Source: Actinopolymorpha singaporensis | Lineage (GTDB): Bacteria > Actinomycetota > Actinomycetes > Propionibacteriales > Actinopolymorphaceae | Assembly: GCF_900104745.1 (NCBI RefSeq) | Contig: NZ_LT629732.1 | Coordinates: 5,443,981 to 5,507,980, forward strand | Reading direction: 5' to 3' | Length of the DNA stretch: 64,000 nucleotides | Shown: positions 53,309-58,866 of the stretch, piece after piece | Position numbering within the stretch: the first letter of the stretch is position 1 | Layout: each line of letters opens with the position of its first letter | Program-made: the position numbers and the translations under genes | The notes under the pieces: model-generated | Database searches by the model: none | Seen by the model: only the letters and a program-made list of their open reading frames with translations | Told to the model about the DNA's origin: nothing

Positions 53309-53983
53309 ATGGCAGCACCGGCACCGGTCCGCCGGCTACCCACCCGCGACCTGGCGCTGATCGCGCTGTTCGCGGCCCTGATCGCGGTGCTCGGCTTGCC
53401 GGGATCCATCGCGCTGTTCGGCAGCACCGTCCCGATCACCGCGCAGTCGCTGGGGCCGATGCTGGCCGGGTCGATCCTGGGTGCGCGCCGCGGCCTGCTG
53501 GCCACGCTGACGTTCTGCGCGCTCGTGCTCGCCGGGCTGCCGCTGCTGGCCGGCGGCCGGGGCGGGCTGGGCGTACTGGCCGGTGCGTCGGCCGGCTACT
53601 TCGTGGGGTTCCCGCTGGGCGCCTGGGTGACCGGATGGCTGACCGAGCGCCTGCTCCCCCGCTACAGCATCCCGGCCGGGCTGGTCGCCAACATCGTCGG
53701 CGGCATCGTCGTGGTGTACGCGGTGGGTGTTCCGGTACAGGCGTGGCGGTCGGGTACGACCGGACTGGTCGCCACGTTGGTAGCTGCGACGGTGTTCCTG
53801 CCCGGCGACCTGATCAAGGCGGTGATCGCGACGCTGGTCGCCCGCGGGGTCCACGCGGGCTACCCGACTCTCGGTTCGGCCGAGGCCGGCGGACCAGCGG
53901 CCGAGCCTGACGGCCCCGGTGGCGAGCCCGCCGACCCGGCTGGCGGGAAGCCGAGCGGGTCGAAGCGGCGAGCGCGGCGGTAG
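53309..53983 (+). CDS. bioY: biotin ECF transporter substrate-binding protein BioY
   Basis: The membrane S-component that captures biotin for the energy-coupling-factor transporter. The 224-residue protein has six helices and BioY hallmarks: PTRDLALIALFAALIAVLG, VPITAQSLGPMLAGSILGARRG, LAGLPLLAGGRGGLGVLAGASAGYFVGFPLGAW, and VFLPGDLIKAVIATLVA. The C-terminus is a Gly/Pro-rich tail. The ATG follows GAGGAG by six bases. It is first in a five-gene run whose last two genes are the transporter's ATPase and T-component; 11 bases separate it from the ligase gene. Confidence 0.94.
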   Translation: MAAPAPVRRLPTRDLALIALFAALIAVLGLPGSIALFGSTVPITAQSLGPMLAGSILGARRGLLATLTFCALVLAGLPLLAGGRGGLGVLAGASAGYFVGFPLGAWVTGWLTERLLPRYSIPAGLVANIVGGIVVVYAVGVPVQAWRSGTTGLVATLVAATVFLPGDLIKAVIATLVARGVHAGYPTLGSAEAGGPAAEPDGPGGEPADPAGGKPSGSKRRARR

Positions 53984-53994
53984 CGTTCGCCTCG

Positions 53995-55290
53995 ATGCCC
54001 ATCTCCCGCGACGTACGCCGCCGGGCGGCCGCCGAGCCGGACCGGCCGGCGCTGGTCGGTCGCTCCGGGACGGTCGGCTACGGCGAACTGGCCGCCCGCG
54101 CCGAACGCCGGGCCGAGACGCTCGCCGCCTCCGGAGTCGCAGCCGGGCACGCCGTGGTCTGTGCCGACCCGGACCCGGCCGACCTGCTGGCCGCCGTAGT
54201 CGCGGCCGACCTGCTGGAGGCGGCCGCTGTGGTCGCCGACGCCGACTGGCCGGACGCCGTCCGCGAGCCGGCCGCGGCCTCCGCCCGCGCACTGGTGGAC
54301 CGGCACGGCACCGCCGTGAGCCTGGTGGTGTTCACCTCCGGCAGCACCGGCACTCCCCGGCCGGTGGCGCGGACCCGCCGGTCGTGGACGTTCAGCTTCC
54401 CCACGTTCTCCGCCCTCACCGGTGTCGGTGCGCAGGACACGGTGCTGGTGCCCGGCCGGTTGTCCGGAAGCCTGTTCCTGTACGGCGCCCTGCACGCGCT
54501 GACCGTGGGTGCCGCGGTGCACGCCCTGCCGTCCTGGTCGCCCGCCGACGCCGCCCGGGCCTGCGAGTCCTGCACCGCCGTGCACCTGGTGCCGAGCATG
54601 CTCACCGAACTTCTGGACCGGCTCGGCCCCTCCGCCGGCCGGCTGCGGACCGTCGTGTGCGGGGGCGCCCACCTCGACCCCGGCGTACGCGCGAAGGCCG
54701 CGGCGGCCGGAATGGAGGTCGTCGACTACTACGGCGCGGCCGAACTCTCCTTCGTCGCCATCCGCAGGCCGGGCCTGCCGCCGGATCGGTTGCGGCCGTT
54801 CCCCGAGGTGGACGTCGACGTCCGCGACGGCGTGATCTGGGCCCGCGGCCCCTACCTCGCGCTCGGGCTGGACCGCGACCCCGACGGGTTCGCCACGGTC
54901 GGCGACCACGGTGTACGCCACGACGACGGAACGCTGTCGGTCCACGGGCGCGGCGACGCGGCGATCACCACCGGCGGCGCGACCGTCCTCGCCGAGGCGG
55001 TCGAACACGTGCTGCGGCAGGTGCCCGGGGTGGCCGAGGTCGCCTGCGTCGGTACGCCGCACGAACGGCTGGGCCAGGTCGTCGCCGCGGTCGTCGAACC
55101 CCGGCCGGGCTGCGCACCCACCCTGGCCGAGCTGCGGGCGGCCGCGGCGGTGGGCCTGGCGGCCACCGATCGGCCGCGGCTCTGGTACGCCGTGGACCGG
55201 CTCCCCCGTACCCCCGGCGGCAAGGTGCCGCGAGCCGAGGTCCACGCCGGCCTGCGCGACGGCTCGCTCGGCGCCCGGGTGCTGACGTGA
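53995..55290 (+). CDS. AMP-forming acyl-CoA synthetase-like enzyme of the biotin-transport operon
   Basis: A 431-residue ANL-superfamily ligase, short like MenE. The ATP loop reads VVFTSGSTGTPRPVART (the usual Lys is Arg), then VVDYYGAAELSFV in place of YGxTE, GDHGVRHDDGTLSVHGRGD with the ribose-binding Asp, and RTPGGKVPRAE with the catalytic Lys. It should activate a carboxylic acid to an acyl-CoA. Its place between bioY and the ecf genes suggests that the acid is biotin, a biotin precursor such as a pimelate-type acid, or a breakdown product. A menaquinone role (MenE) is less likely because no men gene is near. Coupled by GTGA overlap to the thiolase-like gene. Confidence 0.85.
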   Translation: MPISRDVRRRAAAEPDRPALVGRSGTVGYGELAARAERRAETLAASGVAAGHAVVCADPDPADLLAAVVAADLLEAAAVVADADWPDAVREPAAASARALVDRHGTAVSLVVFTSGSTGTPRPVARTRRSWTFSFPTFSALTGVGAQDTVLVPGRLSGSLFLYGALHALTVGAAVHALPSWSPADAARACESCTAVHLVPSMLTELLDRLGPSAGRLRTVVCGGAHLDPGVRAKAAAAGMEVVDYYGAAELSFVAIRRPGLPPDRLRPFPEVDVDVRDGVIWARGPYLALGLDRDPDGFATVGDHGVRHDDGTLSVHGRGDAAITTGGATVLAEAVEHVLRQVPGVAEVACVGTPHERLGQVVAAVVEPRPGCAPTLAELRAAAAVGLAATDRPRLWYAVDRLPRTPGGKVPRAEVHAGLRDGSLGARVLT

Positions 55291-56531
55291 ACCCGCACCC
55301 CGGCTCAGCGCCCGTCCTGGTGGCCGCCCGGCGTACGCCCCTGGCCACCGCCGGCCGCGGGCTCGCCCACCTGTCCGCCGACGAACTCGCCGCACCGGTG
55401 CTGCGCGCGCTGTTGGCCGACCTCCGGATCCCCGTCGAGCAGGACACCGCGCCGCACTCTGTGCCGAACTCCGTGCCGAGCACCGCGGTCGCCGACGTCA
55501 TCCTCGGCAACACGATGGGTCCCGGCGGGAACGTCGCCCGGGTGGCCGCCCTGCGTGCCGGGCTCGGTCCGGCTGTGCCCGGCCTGACCGTCGACCGCCA
55601 GTGCGGCAGCGGCCTGGAGGCGGTGACGCTGGCGGCCGGACAGGTACGTGCGGGGCTGGGCGCGCTTTACCTCGCCGGCGGGGTGGAGAGCGCGTCCACC
55701 GCGCCGGTGCGGGCGTGGCGGCCGGACACCCCGGGCGAGGCACCACGCCCGTACGACCGTGCGCCGTTCGCTCCCCCGCCGTACGCCGACCCGGAGATGG
55801 GCGCCGCTGCCGACCTGGTGGCCCGCGAGGCCGGGGTGAGCCGGGAACGCCAGGACGGCTACGCCGCGCGCAGCCATGCCCGGGCGGTGGCGGCCGCGGC
55901 GGCAGGGCGGTTCGCCGCGGAGATCGTCCCGCTGGCCGGTTGCGACCGCGACGACCGTCCCCGGGCCGGGCTGGACCTGAGCAGGCTCGCCCGGCTGCGG
56001 CCGGCGTTCGTTCCCGTCGGCGAGGGAGGCACGGTCACCGCGGGCAACTCCTGCGGCGTCAACGACGGCGCGGCCGCGGTGGCCGTCGTCTCCGAACGCC
56101 TGCGCGCCGCACGTGGGTGGGCCGGGCTGCGGCTGGTCGACTGGGCGTGCACCGGCACCGATCCCGGCCGGCCCGGTCTGGGACCGGTGTCCGCCGTACG
56201 CGCCCTGCTGGACCGGCAGGGCCTCAAGCTCGCCGACGTGGGTGCGATCGAGTTCGTGGAGGCGTTCGCCGGTCAGGTGCTCGCCTGCGCCGACGCCCTC
56301 GACCTGGACCCGGAACGGATCTGCGCCGACGGCGGCGCGCTGGCGCTCGGCCACCCGTGGGGCGCGAGCGGCGCGGTCGTCCTCGTGCGGTTGTTCTCGC
56401 GGATGGTGCGCGCCGGTGGTCCCGACCTCGGGCTGGCCGCGGTCGCGGTCGGCGGCGGGATGGGGCTGGCCGCGCTGGTGGCGAGGGTGCCCGGCGAGTC
56501 TGCCCCCGACTCTGTTGGGAGCCGGTCGTGA
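55287..56531 (+). CDS. thiolase-family protein with altered active site
   Basis: A 414-residue thiolase fold. The nucleophilic Cys is kept in TVDRQCGSGLEAV (near residue 104) and the His in LALGHPWGASGAV (near 355). Two other conserved elements differ: the NEAFA motif reads VEAFAGQ (Asn lost) and the C-terminal CIGGG reads AVGGGMG (the acid/base Cys is Val). A short PHSVPNSVPST repeat sits in an N-terminal loop. Claisen condensation or thiolysis by the standard mechanism is therefore doubtful; an acyl-transfer or hydrolytic role is possible. Overlaps both neighbours by four bases, so it is stoichiometrically tied to the ligase and to the transporter ATPase. Confidence 0.88.
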   Translation: MNPHPGSAPVLVAARRTPLATAGRGLAHLSADELAAPVLRALLADLRIPVEQDTAPHSVPNSVPSTAVADVILGNTMGPGGNVARVAALRAGLGPAVPGLTVDRQCGSGLEAVTLAAGQVRAGLGALYLAGGVESASTAPVRAWRPDTPGEAPRPYDRAPFAPPPYADPEMGAAADLVAREAGVSRERQDGYAARSHARAVAAAAAGRFAAEIVPLAGCDRDDRPRAGLDLSRLARLRPAFVPVGEGGTVTAGNSCGVNDGAAAVAVVSERLRAARGWAGLRLVDWACTGTDPGRPGLGPVSAVRALLDRQGLKLADVGAIEFVEAFAGQVLACADALDLDPERICADGGALALGHPWGASGAVVLVRLFSRMVRAGGPDLGLAAVAVGGGMGLAALVARVPGESAPDSVGSRS

Positions 56532-57202
56532 TCGAACTCCGCAGCGTCTCCCACCATTACGGCCCGCGGACCGTGCTCTCCGGGCTCGACCTCGAGCTGT
56601 CCGAGCGGCGCATCGGCGTGATCGGCGCCAACGGCTCGGGCAAGTCCACGTTCGCGCGGCTGCTCAACGGCCTGGTCCTGCCGACCCGCGGTCAGGTGCT
56701 GGTGGACGGCTACGACACGCGTACGGCGGGCCGCGAGGTCCGCCGCCGGGTCGGGTTCGTGTTCACCGATCCCGACGCCCAGGTGGTGATGCCGACGGTG
56801 GCCGAGGACGTCGCGTTCGGGCTGCGCCGGTCAGGGCTGTCCCGGGCGCAGATCGCCGAGCGGGTGGAGGCGGCGCTCTCGGCGTACGGTCTCGCGGAGT
56901 ACGCCGACCACCCTGCCCACCTGCTCTCCGGCGGGCAGACCCAGCTGCTGGCGCTGGCCGGTGTCCTGGTAACCGAACCCGGCACGCTGGTCTGCGACGA
57001 GCCGACCACGCTGCTCGACCTGCGCAACGCGCGGCTGGTCACCGAGTTGCTGGCCGCGCTGCCTCAGCGGGTCGTCCTGGTCACCCATCACCTGCAACTG
57101 CTGGACGGCTTCGACCGGGTGCTGGTGCTGCACGAGGGCCGGGTGGCCGCCGACACCGACCCCGCCTCGGCGGTCACGGCGTACGAGGAGCTGCTGGCGT
57201 GA
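56528..57202 (+). CDS. bioM: ECF transporter ATPase (BioM/EcfA type)
   Basis: The 224-residue ATPase that powers biotin uptake with BioY and EcfT. Walker A is GANGSGKSTFAR, the Q-loop region is FTDPDAQVVMPTVAEDVAFG (characteristic of ECF ATPases), the signature is LSGGQTQLLAL, Walker B is VCDEPTTLLD and the switch His is in LVTHHLQLL. The GTG overlaps the thiolase stop by four bases and its own stop overlaps ecfT by four. Only one ATPase gene is present, so it should act as a homodimer, as in BioMNY systems. Confidence 0.93.
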   Translation: MIELRSVSHHYGPRTVLSGLDLELSERRIGVIGANGSGKSTFARLLNGLVLPTRGQVLVDGYDTRTAGREVRRRVGFVFTDPDAQVVMPTVAEDVAFGLRRSGLSRAQIAERVEAALSAYGLAEYADHPAHLLSGGQTQLLALAGVLVTEPGTLVCDEPTTLLDLRNARLVTELLAALPQRVVLVTHHLQLLDGFDRVLVLHEGRVAADTDPASAVTAYEELLA

Positions 57203-57867
57203 CCGCGTCCTCGTCGCCGGGCGCCTCGGTGTCGTCCGGGCTCGGGCTCTACCAGCCGGGCGGCTCGCTGCTGCACCGCGCGCCGGCGGGCGCGAAGCTC
57301 GCCGGCCTGGCGGTGGCCGCCGTCGGCGTACTGCGGATCACCACCGTGCCCAACCTCGTGCTGGCGTTCGCGGTGACGTTGCTGGCCGCCGGGCTCGCCC
57401 GGATCCCGTGGCGCGTCGGCCTGGCCCAGCTGCGGCCGGTGCTGTGGTTCGCGGTGCCGCTGCTGGCGTTCCAGTGGCTCACCGCCGGCCCGCACCGGGC
57501 GGTGCTGGTCGTCGGGCAGCTGCTGCTGATGGTCACGCTGGCCGCACTGGTGACCCTCACCACCCGGGTGTCGGCCATGCTGGACGCGTTCGAGGCCGGC
57601 CTGCGGCCGCTGCGGAGGGTGGGGGTGAGCCCGGCCCGGGTGGCGCTGGTGCTCGCGCTCACGGTGCGCTGCGTACCCCTGGTCGCCCAGACGTTCGCCG
57701 AGACCAGGGAGGCACAGCGGGCCCGCGGCCTGGAACGCAGCCCGGCCGCGCTGGTGGTCCCGCTCGTCATCCGGTTGCTCAAGCGGGCCGACGCGATCGG
57801 TGAGGCGCTGGCCGCCCGCGGTGTCGACGACGACCCCGCTGACACCGGCGGCCGGCCGCGCCGGTGA
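57199..57867 (+). CDS. bioN: ECF transporter T-component (BioN/EcfT type)
   Basis: The 222-residue transmembrane coupling protein of the biotin transporter. It has about five membrane helices (VPNLVLAFAVTLLAAGLARI, LWFAVPLLAFQWL, VGQLLLMVTLAALVTL and others) and the two Ala-Arg-Gly coupling motifs (EAQRARGLE and EALAARGVDD) that contact the ATPases. Typical start HRAPAGAKLAGLAV follows a short disordered N-terminus. Last gene of the operon; it converges on the IclR gene with no strong terminator visible between. Confidence 0.93.
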   Translation: MTASSSPGASVSSGLGLYQPGGSLLHRAPAGAKLAGLAVAAVGVLRITTVPNLVLAFAVTLLAAGLARIPWRVGLAQLRPVLWFAVPLLAFQWLTAGPHRAVLVVGQLLLMVTLAALVTLTTRVSAMLDAFEAGLRPLRRVGVSPARVALVLALTVRCVPLVAQTFAETREAQRARGLERSPAALVVPLVIRLLKRADAIGEALAARGVDDDPADTGGRPRR

Positions 57868-57951: not shown

Positions 57952-58866
57952 TCACCCGGGCGGCGGCTCGGCCCTGGTGAGGTAGGCCGCGACACCCTCC
58001 CGGGTGGCGCCGAGCTGTTCGGAGATCGACCACGCGGCCGCGACCACCAGCGGGGCGTACTCCTCCATGCGTTCCTCCGGCATCCGCCCGGCCGGCGCGG
58101 AGACGCTGAGCGAAGCGACGGGCAGGTCGGCACCGTCGAAGACGGCGGAGGCGACTGTGCGGATCCCCGACGTGCGCTCGGCCCGGGAGAACGCGACGTT
58201 GCGCCGGCGGATGCCGACCAGCTGCTTGCGCAGCACGTCCGGCTCGGTCGGATCGGCCGGTGACGTGGCCTGTGACGTACCCGGCGAGGTTCCCGGTGAC
58301 GTGGCCGTGATCGGCCGGGCGAGCACCGCCTCCTGTACGTCGTACGGCAGGGCGGCCAGCAGCACCTTGCCGGGCGCGCCGAGTGGCAACGGGATCGGTG
58401 CGCCGAACTCGGTGTAGGTCCGCCGCAGCGGCTGGCGGCTTTCCACCTGGTCGATGACCGCGCGTTCGCGGGTGGGCAGGAGTACGTGCAGGCCGACCGT
58501 CTCGTCCACCTCGTCGCGCAGCCGGGTCATCACCGGGCGGGCGGCGTCGAGCACGCTGGCCGGGGCGGCGCCGACCCTGGCCAGCCGCAGCAGCAGCGGG
58601 CCGAGCGCGTAGCGGCGGTCGCGGGACTGGCGTACGAGACGGTTGTCCTGCAGCGCGCTGAGCAGCCGGTGGGTCGTGCTCGTCGACAGGCCGGTGCGGC
58701 GCGCCAGGTCGCTGATACCGAGCTCGGGATGCGCGGTGTCGAAGCAGCGCAGGATCGCGACGGCGCGGTCGATGGACTGTACGCCGCGGCGCCGCCCGGA
58801 CGTCACGGACGTCACGGACGTCTCGGCCGGTTCGTTCGGCGAATCGTCGCGAGTCGTTGACCTCAC
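57952..58866 (-). CDS. IclR-family transcriptional regulator
   Basis: A 304-residue regulator. The winged helix (about residues 28-90) reads VQSIDRAVAILRCF and LARRTGLSTSTTHRLLSALQ. The GAF-like effector domain follows (VDETVGLHVLLPTRERAVIDQ, GAPGKVLLAALP, ERTSGIRTVASAVFDG, VASLSVSAPAGRM). A TSPGTSPGTSQATSP repeat interrupts the effector domain. IclR proteins control carboxylic-acid or aromatic catabolism. The target is not evident; it converges on the biotin operon and is divergent from an F420 monooxygenase, which is the best candidate. A partly palindromic AATTGCGAGCGATT lies at 58913-58926 in the divergent region. The GTG start is uncertain. Confidence 0.9.
   Translation of the reverse strand: MRSTTRDDSPNEPAETSVTSVTSGRRRGVQSIDRAVAILRCFDTAHPELGISDLARRTGLSTSTTHRLLSALQDNRLVRQSRDRRYALGPLLLRLARVGAAPASVLDAARPVMTRLRDEVDETVGLHVLLPTRERAVIDQVESRQPLRRTYTEFGAPIPLPLGAPGKVLLAALPYDVQEAVLARPITATSPGTSPGTSQATSPADPTEPDVLRKQLVGIRRRNVAFSRAERTSGIRTVASAVFDGADLPVASLSVSAPAGRMPEERMEEYAPLVVAAAWSISEQLGATREGVAAYLTRAEPPPG

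What the first reader, a model, noticed from the sequence alone, without database searches (positions are those of the whole stretch)
53309..57867. Biotin ECF transporter operon with an embedded CoA-ligase-like gene and a thiolase-like gene
bioY, an AMP-forming ligase, a thiolase homologue, bioM and bioN are read as one unit; the last four overlap by GTGA, so the two enzymes are translationally locked to the transporter. A transporter does not need them. A ligase plus thiolase pair suggests CoA activation and chain trimming or building: shortening of the biotin side chain (biotin to bisnorbiotin-type breakdown), salvage of a biotin analogue, or making a pimeloyl-type precursor. The fixed stoichiometry favours metabolism of the imported molecule. 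Domain identities are seen; the pathway is inference.
Basis: partly seen in the sequence, partly recalled or inferred. Interest (0 to 1): 0.82.

Follow-up and report, generated by a model that had tools for sequence, protein, structure and literature searches.

The report
Biotin uptake operon with orphan enzymes
A vitamin-B7 importer operon carries two extra enzymes that travel with biotin uptake genes in three bacterial phyla; one is a "thiolase" that has lost a key catalytic cysteine, and its fuller relatives suggest a way to rebuild damaged biotin, which would be new but is untested.

Summary
In detail: bioY, ligase, thiolase-like, bioM, bioN; the last four overlap by GTGA. The pair is the B. 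subtilis yhfT/yhfS family, known from BirA-regulated yhfUTS, and lies beside bioY in Actinomycetota, Alphaproteobacteria and Bacilli. New here: (1) the "thiolase" belongs to one clade that keeps the nucleophilic Cys and His but has lost the second, acid/base Cys (36 rows; the 76 others keep it). (2) 14 of 20 such Bacilli loci have a BirA-like operator in front and 7 of 28 actinobacterial ones a BioQ box, pointing to use when biotin is scarce; the window shows neither. (3) Three related Bacilli loci extend the pair to a full two-carbon elongation cycle, in genomes without bioB. The window's genome has no bioB or bioD and no bioA over cut-off, so pimelate supply is excluded here. Best explanation: activation and re-elongation of an imported short-chain biotin vitamer; the substrate is inferred. 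Tensions: B. subtilis YhfU imports pantothenate, YhfT is reported to act on hydroxy fatty acids, and the window's operon has no reductases.

The parts
53309..53983 (+). bioY, biotin-type S component of an ECF transporter; Arg in the loop where L. lactis BioY has Asn (GGRGG for GGNGG)
   Evidence: Pfam BioY 5.8e-33; only PDB match at E<=0.01 is 4dve, L. lactis BioY, E 5e-18; loop comparison
53995..55290 (+). AMP-forming acyl ligase, YhfT-like, 431 aa
   Evidence: AMP-binding and AMP-binding_C; best NCBIfam model PRK07638, 160.6 bits, below cut-off 518; predicted fold pLDDT 88.9, pTM 0.76
54334..54387 (+). ligase P-loop motif TSGSTG and family-specific R..SW (R126, W131)
   Evidence: S115, G116, R126, W131 in 40 of 40 aligned rows
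55222..55224 (+). ligase Lys410 (LPRTPGGK)
   Evidence: Lys in 40 of 40 rows
55287..56531 (+). thiolase-like protein, YhfS-like, 414 aa, GTG start overlapping the ligase stop
   Evidence: Thiolase_N/_C; NCBIfam TIGR01930 334 bits over cut-off, PRK06690 314 bits below cut-off 498
55602..55604 (+). nucleophilic Cys106 (DRQCGSG), kept
56256..56258 (+). Val324 where thiolases have Asn of NEAF
56352..56354 (+). His356 of GHPWGASG, kept
56445..56447 (+). Ala387 where thiolases have the second, acid/base Cys (C-x-GGG)
56528..57202 (+). bioM, ECF ATPase
   Evidence: ABC_tran 7e-25, ECF_ATPase_1 4.6e-58
57199..57867 (+). bioN, ECF T component
   Evidence: CbiQ family 8.1e-13

Best explanation
The operon is a biotin ECF importer with a biotin-scarcity salvage module. 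Proposed mechanism: BioY/M/N import a biotin vitamer whose ring system is intact but whose valeric side chain has been shortened by two or four carbons (bisnor- or tetranorbiotin, beta-oxidation products of biotin; recalled). The ligase adenylates its carboxylate and passes it to a pantetheine thiol (CoA or ACP). The thiolase-like protein takes the acyl group on its Cys and either condenses it with a malonyl-type two-carbon donor or hands it to the elongation machinery. Ketoreductase, dehydratase and enoyl reductase (encoded in the operon in some Bacilli, otherwise perhaps borrowed from fatty acid synthesis) complete the cycle, and a thioesterase frees biotin. Shown: gene order, family identity, loss of the acid/base Cys, operator-like sites in relatives, the full reductive cassette in related genomes without bioB, no bioB/bioD and no bioA over cut-off in this genome. 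Inferred: the substrate, the direction in the window's organism, and the step done by the thiolase-like protein.
For: Pair tracks BioY (18 of 18 against 65 of 130). bioY lies in the fetched stretch of 33 of 36 no-Cys rows; an HMM made from linked BioYs found none in the 68 scan loci whose thiolase keeps the Cys. One clade, one change, SH-aLRT 99 with the Cys and Asn columns masked. In the 30 Bacilli loci held, 24 lack the Cys and all 24 have an adjacent ligase; 6 keep it and none has one within 1.5 kb. Three Bacilli loci (L176, L177, L180) run ligase - thiolase-like - two hotdog dehydratases - FabG-like SDR - ECF A, A, T - FabK-like enoyl reductase; all three genomes lack bioB while 15 of the other 16 tested have it. 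Partial sets: dehydratase pair in L069 and L174; FabG-like SDR in L178, L179, L181; FabK-like in L188; MDR reductase and 4HBT thioesterase beside five plasmid loci. An enoyl reductase favours the building direction. BirA-like sites 1-91 bases upstream of the first gene in 14 of 20 no-Cys Bacilli loci, 6 of them perfect and no perfect site elsewhere; perfect BioQ boxes at bioY in 7 of 28 actinobacterial loci, the motif being that predicted for BioQ in PMC3398298, whose bioYMN is induced by biotin limitation. Own genome: no bioB, no bioD, no bioA over cut-off, but biotin protein ligase and panC.
Against: No substrate is known. The window's operon has no ketoreductase, dehydratase or enoyl reductase and no BirA-like or BioQ-like site at up to 2 mismatches upstream. 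Val in place of the NEAF Asn in the window weakens an oxyanion hole (recalled enzymology), so condensation is doubtful in most actinobacterial forms. A review (PMC10988940, passages) says B. subtilis YhfT makes acyl-AMP from 3-hydroxy fatty acids, no CoA thioester, and passes it to ACP. B. subtilis YhfU was shown to be needed for pantothenate uptake (PMC11487621). Most Bacilli tested with the pair have bioB (15 of 19), as do 8 of 11 further genomes, so auxotrophy is not required. The three full-cassette loci are relatives (thiolase-like 93% and 83% identical to L176), so the bioB coincidence may be one event. MDR and thioesterase genes are partly on the opposite strand.
Confidence: 0.36

Rival explanations
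1. Biotin-sparing lipid response: when biotin (hence acetyl-CoA carboxylase) is short, the ligase activates free or exogenous fatty acids and the Cys/His thiolase-like protein moves the acyl group onto ACP, so membrane lipids can be made with less malonyl-CoA. It shares a regulon, not a substrate, with BioY.
For: Reported YhfT activity on 3-hydroxy fatty acids with transfer to ACP (review PMC10988940, passages); FabG-, HadB- and FabK-like partners carry ACP-type family names, all below cut-off; loss of the acid/base Cys fits simple acyl transfer; loci L182-L186, which I take for staphylococci from genome size and layout, have the pair without bioY beside it, and 4 of those 5 have a BirA-like site upstream.
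Against: Does not explain why bioY is in the fetched stretch of 33 of 36 no-Cys rows, or why the ligase occurs only in BioY-bearing genomes among 148; a dedicated elongation set in operons of biotin auxotrophs is redundant with ordinary fatty acid synthesis; acetyl-CoA based, malonyl-free elongation would need the lost Cys.
Confidence: 0.26
2. Precursor supply: the ligase activates glutarate or pimelate and the module builds a pimeloyl thioester for biotin synthesis.
For: BirA regulon; precedent of BioZ, a thiolase-superfamily enzyme in biotin synthesis (PMC8024396, search listing only).
Against: Own genome has no bioB, no bioD and no bioA over cut-off; 13 of 18 Actinomycetes ligase genomes lack bioB; the three full-cassette Bacilli lack bioB.
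Confidence: 0.08
3. Biotin catabolism: the pair opens beta-oxidation of biotin's side chain.
For: Ligase plus thiolase fold; dehydratase and SDR could run in either direction.
Against: Operator-like sites predict repression by biotin (biotin-dependent BirA binding or repression shown for B. subtilis yhfU and S. aureus yhfST in PMC4016012 and PMC6391492, passages); FabK-like or MDR reductases are found, and none of the 29 neighbouring proteins scanned with Pfam is an acyl-CoA dehydrogenase; the second Cys is missing.
Confidence: 0.07
4. The linked BioY imports another acid, for example pantothenate as shown for B. subtilis YhfU (PanU), and the enzymes act on that.
For: panC yhfU mutant phenotype (PMC11487621, discussion and passages read); all 43 linked BioY rows have Arg where L. 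lactis BioY has Asn, against 4 of 20 unlinked.
Against: Window genome has panC, one BioY and no bioB/bioD, so it needs a biotin importer; BirA/BioQ-type sites in relatives. The Arg trait has only 2 independent contrasts on supported branches.
Confidence: 0.1

Closest known systems
B. subtilis yhfU-yhfT-yhfS operon (BirA regulon); S. aureus yhfST
   Same: Same gene families, bioY-ligase-thiolase order, biotin link. A Fictibacillus relative, L069, passes the curated cut-offs of both NCBIfam models (509 vs 498 and 538 vs 518 bits), and B. subtilis is the only one of 14 control genomes over the PRK06690 cut-off.
   Different: Window has its own bioM/bioN in the operon; window proteins fall below both cut-offs; Val for Asn in the thiolase-like protein; no BirA-like operator found. 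The B. subtilis sequence itself was not fetched.
Acetyl-CoA C-acyltransferases (thiolases)
   Same: Fold, nucleophilic Cys and GHPxG His.
   Different: Second Cys replaced by Ala here (Ala, Ser or Gly in the clade), NEAF Asn replaced by Val.
BioYMN/BioMNY biotin ECF transporters (e.g. Corynebacterium glutamicum bioYMN, PMC3398298)
   Same: S, A and T components with a dedicated module.
   Different: Two enzymes inserted between S and A components; Arg in the BioY loop.
BioZ (biotin enzyme of Rhizobiales, KAS III type)
   Same: Thiolase-superfamily enzyme with a biotin role (PMC8024396, search listing only).
   Different: BioZ begins biotin synthesis; this genome lacks bioB and bioD.

Membership tests
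YhfUTS-type biotin-regulon operon | bioY directly followed by PRK07638-type ligase and PRK06690-type thiolase | tested here: inconclusive
   Gene order met; PRK07638 is the best and PRK06690 the second-best NCBIfam model, but both scores are below the curated cut-offs
YhfUTS-type biotin-regulon operon | Biotin-responsive operator upstream | tested here: not met
   No BirA-like or BioQ-like site at <=2 mismatches in about 300 bases upstream; filed as a relative of yhfUTS, not as a proven regulon member
Thiolase (acetyl-CoA C-acyltransferase) | Nucleophilic Cys and catalytic His | tested here: met
   C106, H356
Thiolase (acetyl-CoA C-acyltransferase) | Second Cys (acid/base) and NEAF Asn | tested here: not met
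   A387 and V324; four own-genome paralogues keep Cys and Asn
Biotin ECF transporter BioMNY | BioY S component with A and T components together | tested here: met
Biotin ECF transporter BioMNY | Transport of biotin | not testable with these tools
   Needs an uptake assay; genome lacks bioB and bioD, so some biotin import is expected
MenE (O-succinylbenzoate-CoA ligase) | Score over curated MenE cut-off | tested here: not met
   TIGR01923 99 bits, cut-off 330
De novo biotin synthesis accessory | bioA, bioB, bioD in the genome | tested here: not met
   bioB none at 1e-40; bioD best 21.6 bits (cut-off 83); bioA best 221 (cut-off 405); bioF not searched

The most novel reading that the evidence does not exclude
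A previously undescribed vitamin-repair pathway: bacteria import side-chain-shortened biotin (bisnor/tetranorbiotin) and rebuild the valeric chain by a dedicated ATP-activated two-carbon reductive elongation, with a thiolase that has lost its acid/base Cys and become an acyl-transfer or decarboxylating condensing enzyme; yhfT/yhfS are its core.
Probability: 0.28. Interest if true: 0.88.

Novelty: new variant of a known kind. Interest (0 to 1): 0.7.

Why it matters
yhfT and yhfS are members of the biotin regulon of Bacillus and Staphylococcus whose biotin-related role is unassigned in the papers I saw. A clade-wide loss of a catalytic Cys, linkage to biotin uptake in three phyla, and complete reductive elongation cassettes in related genomes without bioB turn this pair into a specific, cheap growth test. 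If right, biotin breakdown products are a recoverable vitamin source, which would change how biotin auxotrophy and cross-feeding are read.

Tried and rejected
Tested and rejected: pimelate or precursor supply in this genome; tracking with absence of bioB (5 of 18 against 19 of 65 among BioY genomes, p = 1); MenE identity; a known RNA element in the window (no Rfam match at gathering score); a BioQ-like or BirA-like site upstream of the window bioY (none). A BioY loop Arg shared by all 43 linked rows looked like a specificity marker, but only 2 independent contrasts stand on supported branches, so it stays a lead. The BirA pattern at up to 2 mismatches is not rare by count (20 hits in 299 kb against 13.7 in three simple base shuffles); its weight lies in position (14 of the 20 hits) and in the six perfect hits, none of which lies elsewhere. 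Of the actinobacterial loci, 7 of 28 looked at have a perfect BioQ box at bioY (17 regions of 330 bases, window included, and 11 more whole loci); six are Nocardia/Rhodococcus-type by layout or name and one is Mycetocola. Literature: searches listed no paper whose title or opening abstract assigns a biotin-related function to the thiolase-like protein or describes bacterial re-elongation of nor-biotins; the library holds only open-licence papers, and the 2002 regulon paper of Rodionov et al. was not held.

Odds changed on re-checking: best explanation 0.38 to 0.36 and novel case 0.30 to 0.28, because one search showed that the three full-cassette loci are 83-93% identical relatives; the lipid rival went from 0.25 to 0.26.

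Recalled, not from any call: numbering and roles of thiolase residues (Cys89, Asn316, His348, Cys378) and effects of mutating them; Asn79 of L. lactis BioY as a biotin contact; the BirA operator pattern; bisnor/tetranorbiotin as microbial breakdown products (one review passage names bisnorbiotin as a human catabolite).
Full report
What is there. The five genes are real and placed as described. Pfam and NCBIfam identify BioY, an AMP-forming ligase, a thiolase-fold protein, an ECF ATPase and an ECF T component. The ligase/thiolase, thiolase/bioM and bioM/bioN junctions are GTGA overlaps, and bioY precedes the ligase by 11 bases. No Rfam family reaches its gathering score in the window.

Family identity. 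The ligase's best NCBIfam model is PRK07638 and the thiolase's second best is PRK06690, both below the curated cut-offs. A Fictibacillus locus, L069, with the order bioY-ligase-thiolase passes both cut-offs, and B. subtilis is the one control genome of 14 over the PRK06690 cut-off (named in 74). This ties the window to yhfU-yhfT-yhfS, an operon with BirA binding sites shown in PMC4016012 (passages read); biotin-dependent repression of S. aureus yhfST is shown in PMC6391492 (passages read). So the association is not new; the passages I saw give it no biotin-related role.

Distribution. In 148 Actinomycetes genomes the ligase (E <= 1e-30) is in 18, all of which have BioY, against 65 of the other 130. 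Of the 17 outside the own genome, 16 have bioY, ligase and thiolase together; L040 has the pair alone, its genome's bioY lying about 35 kb away on the same contig. Seven of the 17 have the window's five-gene order, L037 with a further ligase after bioN; L041 has the ligase last; eight loci of one family (L025, L026, L028, L031, L033-L036) show no bioM. A tblastn of the thiolase against plasmids gave 134 records. Of the seven regions fetched, five have the pair next to bioM/bioN/bioY (Azospirillum, Sinorhizobium, Shinella, Nonomuraea, Streptantibioticus); two Rhizobium regions have it without bioY in the stretch. One of these two is from R. etli CIAT 652, presumably the strain called R. phaseoli CIAT652 and biotin-auxotrophic in PMC8914248 (passages read).

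The thiolase is not a thiolase in the usual sense. In 112 aligned rows, 36 have Ala, Ser or Gly where thiolases have the second, acid/base Cys; 76 keep Cys. All 36 keep the nucleophilic Cys and the His. Of the 36, 25 (window included) also have Val or Thr for the NEAF Asn; 11 keep Asn, namely the alphaproteobacterial, Arthrobacter-type, Streptantibioticus and Fictibacillus rows and L040. Four own-genome paralogues keep both residues. With the two trait columns masked, the 36 rows are one side of a single branch, SH-aLRT 99, one change (quick tree, no bootstrap). bioY lies within the fetched stretch in 33 of the 36; an HMM built from linked BioYs, which could miss distant ones, found it in none of the 68 scan loci with Cys-bearing thiolases, some of which have short flanks. 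In Bacilli, 39 of 200 genomes have a PRK06690 match at 1e-100 (42 places). Of the 30 places held, 24 lack the Cys and all 24 have an adjacent ligase; 6 keep the Cys and have no ligase of this family within 1.5 kb. In the 20 fetched with wide flanks, 19 lack the Cys and 11 of these have bioY in the stretch. From established thiolase enzymology (recalled), the second Cys is needed for Claisen and retro-Claisen chemistry, so acyl transfer or decarboxylating condensation is more likely. The thiolase-like model has moderate confidence (pLDDT 77, pTM 0.83); the ligase model is better (pLDDT 88.9, pTM 0.76). Ligase residues S115, G116, E250, D304, R319 and K410 are the same in 40 of 40 rows.

Regulation in relatives. 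A BirA-like site (pattern recalled) lies 1-91 bases upstream of the first gene in 14 of 20 no-Cys Bacilli loci (L169-L188 without L187, plus L069); six match the pattern perfectly and no perfect match lies elsewhere or in shuffled sequence. At up to two mismatches the pattern is common, so only position and the perfect matches count. The BioQ box TGAAC-N3-GTTCA (predicted motif, PMC3398298, passage read) is perfect at bioY in L037, L041, L058, L059, L060, L062 and L064, 7 of 28 actinobacterial loci looked at; two further perfect boxes lie elsewhere, in L058 and L039. In several of these the exact bioY start is not settled. C. glutamicum bioYMN, without the two enzymes, is induced by biotin limitation in spite of the word biotin-inducible in the paper's title (PMC3398298). 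In the window I found neither kind of site. Expression under biotin shortage is thus predicted for relatives, not shown for the window.

The extended cassettes. In L176, L177 and L180 the pair is followed without real gaps by two hotdog dehydratase genes, a FabG-like SDR, ECF A-A-T and an enoyl reductase. In L176 Pfam gives FAS1_DH, MaoC, short-chain dehydrogenase and NMO, and the only NCBIfam match of the last at 1e-10 is FabK, 286 bits against a cut-off of 453; the SDR's best models are FabG ones, below cut-off. L177 and L180 were assigned by HMMs built from these. A Vut_1 vitamin transporter stands before the ligase in L176 and a 96% identical copy in L177, where L180 has bioY. L069 and L174 have the dehydratase pair, L178, L179 and L181 a FabG-like SDR, L188 a FabK-like reductase. 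L051, L053, L055, L056 and L057 have an MDR-type reductase and a 4HBT thioesterase next to the set, partly on the opposite strand. The other actinobacterial loci, the window's included, have none of these in the operon. Activating ligase, thiolase-fold Cys enzyme, ketoreductase, dehydratase and enoyl reductase make a complete two-carbon elongation cycle. The three genomes with the whole set lack bioB; of the other 16 Bacilli genomes tested, 15 have it. The three are related (thiolase-like 93% and 83% identical to that of L176), so this may be one event.

What it acts on. The own genome has no bioB, no bioD match of note and no bioA over cut-off, while it has biotin protein ligase and panC. A chain-building module in a cell that cannot finish biotin, probably used (in relatives) when biotin is short and encoded with the biotin importer, is most simply a repair of a ring-bearing, chain-shortened vitamer. 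That is inference. The chief rival is a fatty-acid role, backed by the review statement that B. subtilis YhfT adenylates 3-hydroxy fatty acids and passes them to ACP, and that its loss lowers surfactin (PMC10988940 and PMC7960918, passages). The finding that YhfU imports pantothenate (PMC11487621) is a real tension for the Bacillus operon, less so here because panC is present and BioY is single. The pair does not depend on bioB: within BioY-bearing Actinomycetes 5 of 18 with and 19 of 65 without the ligase have bioB, and 8 of 11 further genomes have it.

Verdict. Observation right, interpretation partly right: building rather than trimming, salvage rather than precursor supply, and a thiolase that is probably no longer one.

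Noticed in passing
L025, L026, L028, L031, L033, L034, L035, L036: Operons of one actinobacterial family have bioY-ligase-thiolase-bioN with no bioM found in the fetched stretch; the source of the ATPase is unknown. L026 is cut by a contig end.
   Followed up: partly
L058, L059, L060, L062, L037: Nocardia/Rhodococcus-type operons carry a second ligase of the same family directly after bioN, while the first ligase is short (about 370 aa in L058).
   Followed up: no
L176:4246-4956, L177:4449-5159: A Vut_1 (PF02592) putative vitamin transporter takes the place of bioY before full elongation cassettes.
   Followed up: partly
L178:8746-10461: An adenine-deaminase-like amidohydrolase gene sits between the ligase and the ECF T gene of a biotin operon.
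   Followed up: no
window 53309-53983 and the linked BioY rows: All 43 linked BioY rows (window included) have Arg where L. lactis BioY has Asn in the GGxGG loop; 4 of 20 unlinked ones do. Too few independent contrasts to count.
   Followed up: partly
L063, L066, L067: Arthrobacter-type loci have the ligase-thiolase pair tail to tail with bioY-bioM-bioN on the opposite strand rather than in one operon.
   Followed up: partly
window 57952-58866 (-): An ORF on the opposite strand just downstream of bioN looks like an IclR-type regulator from its sequence; not scanned.
   Followed up: no
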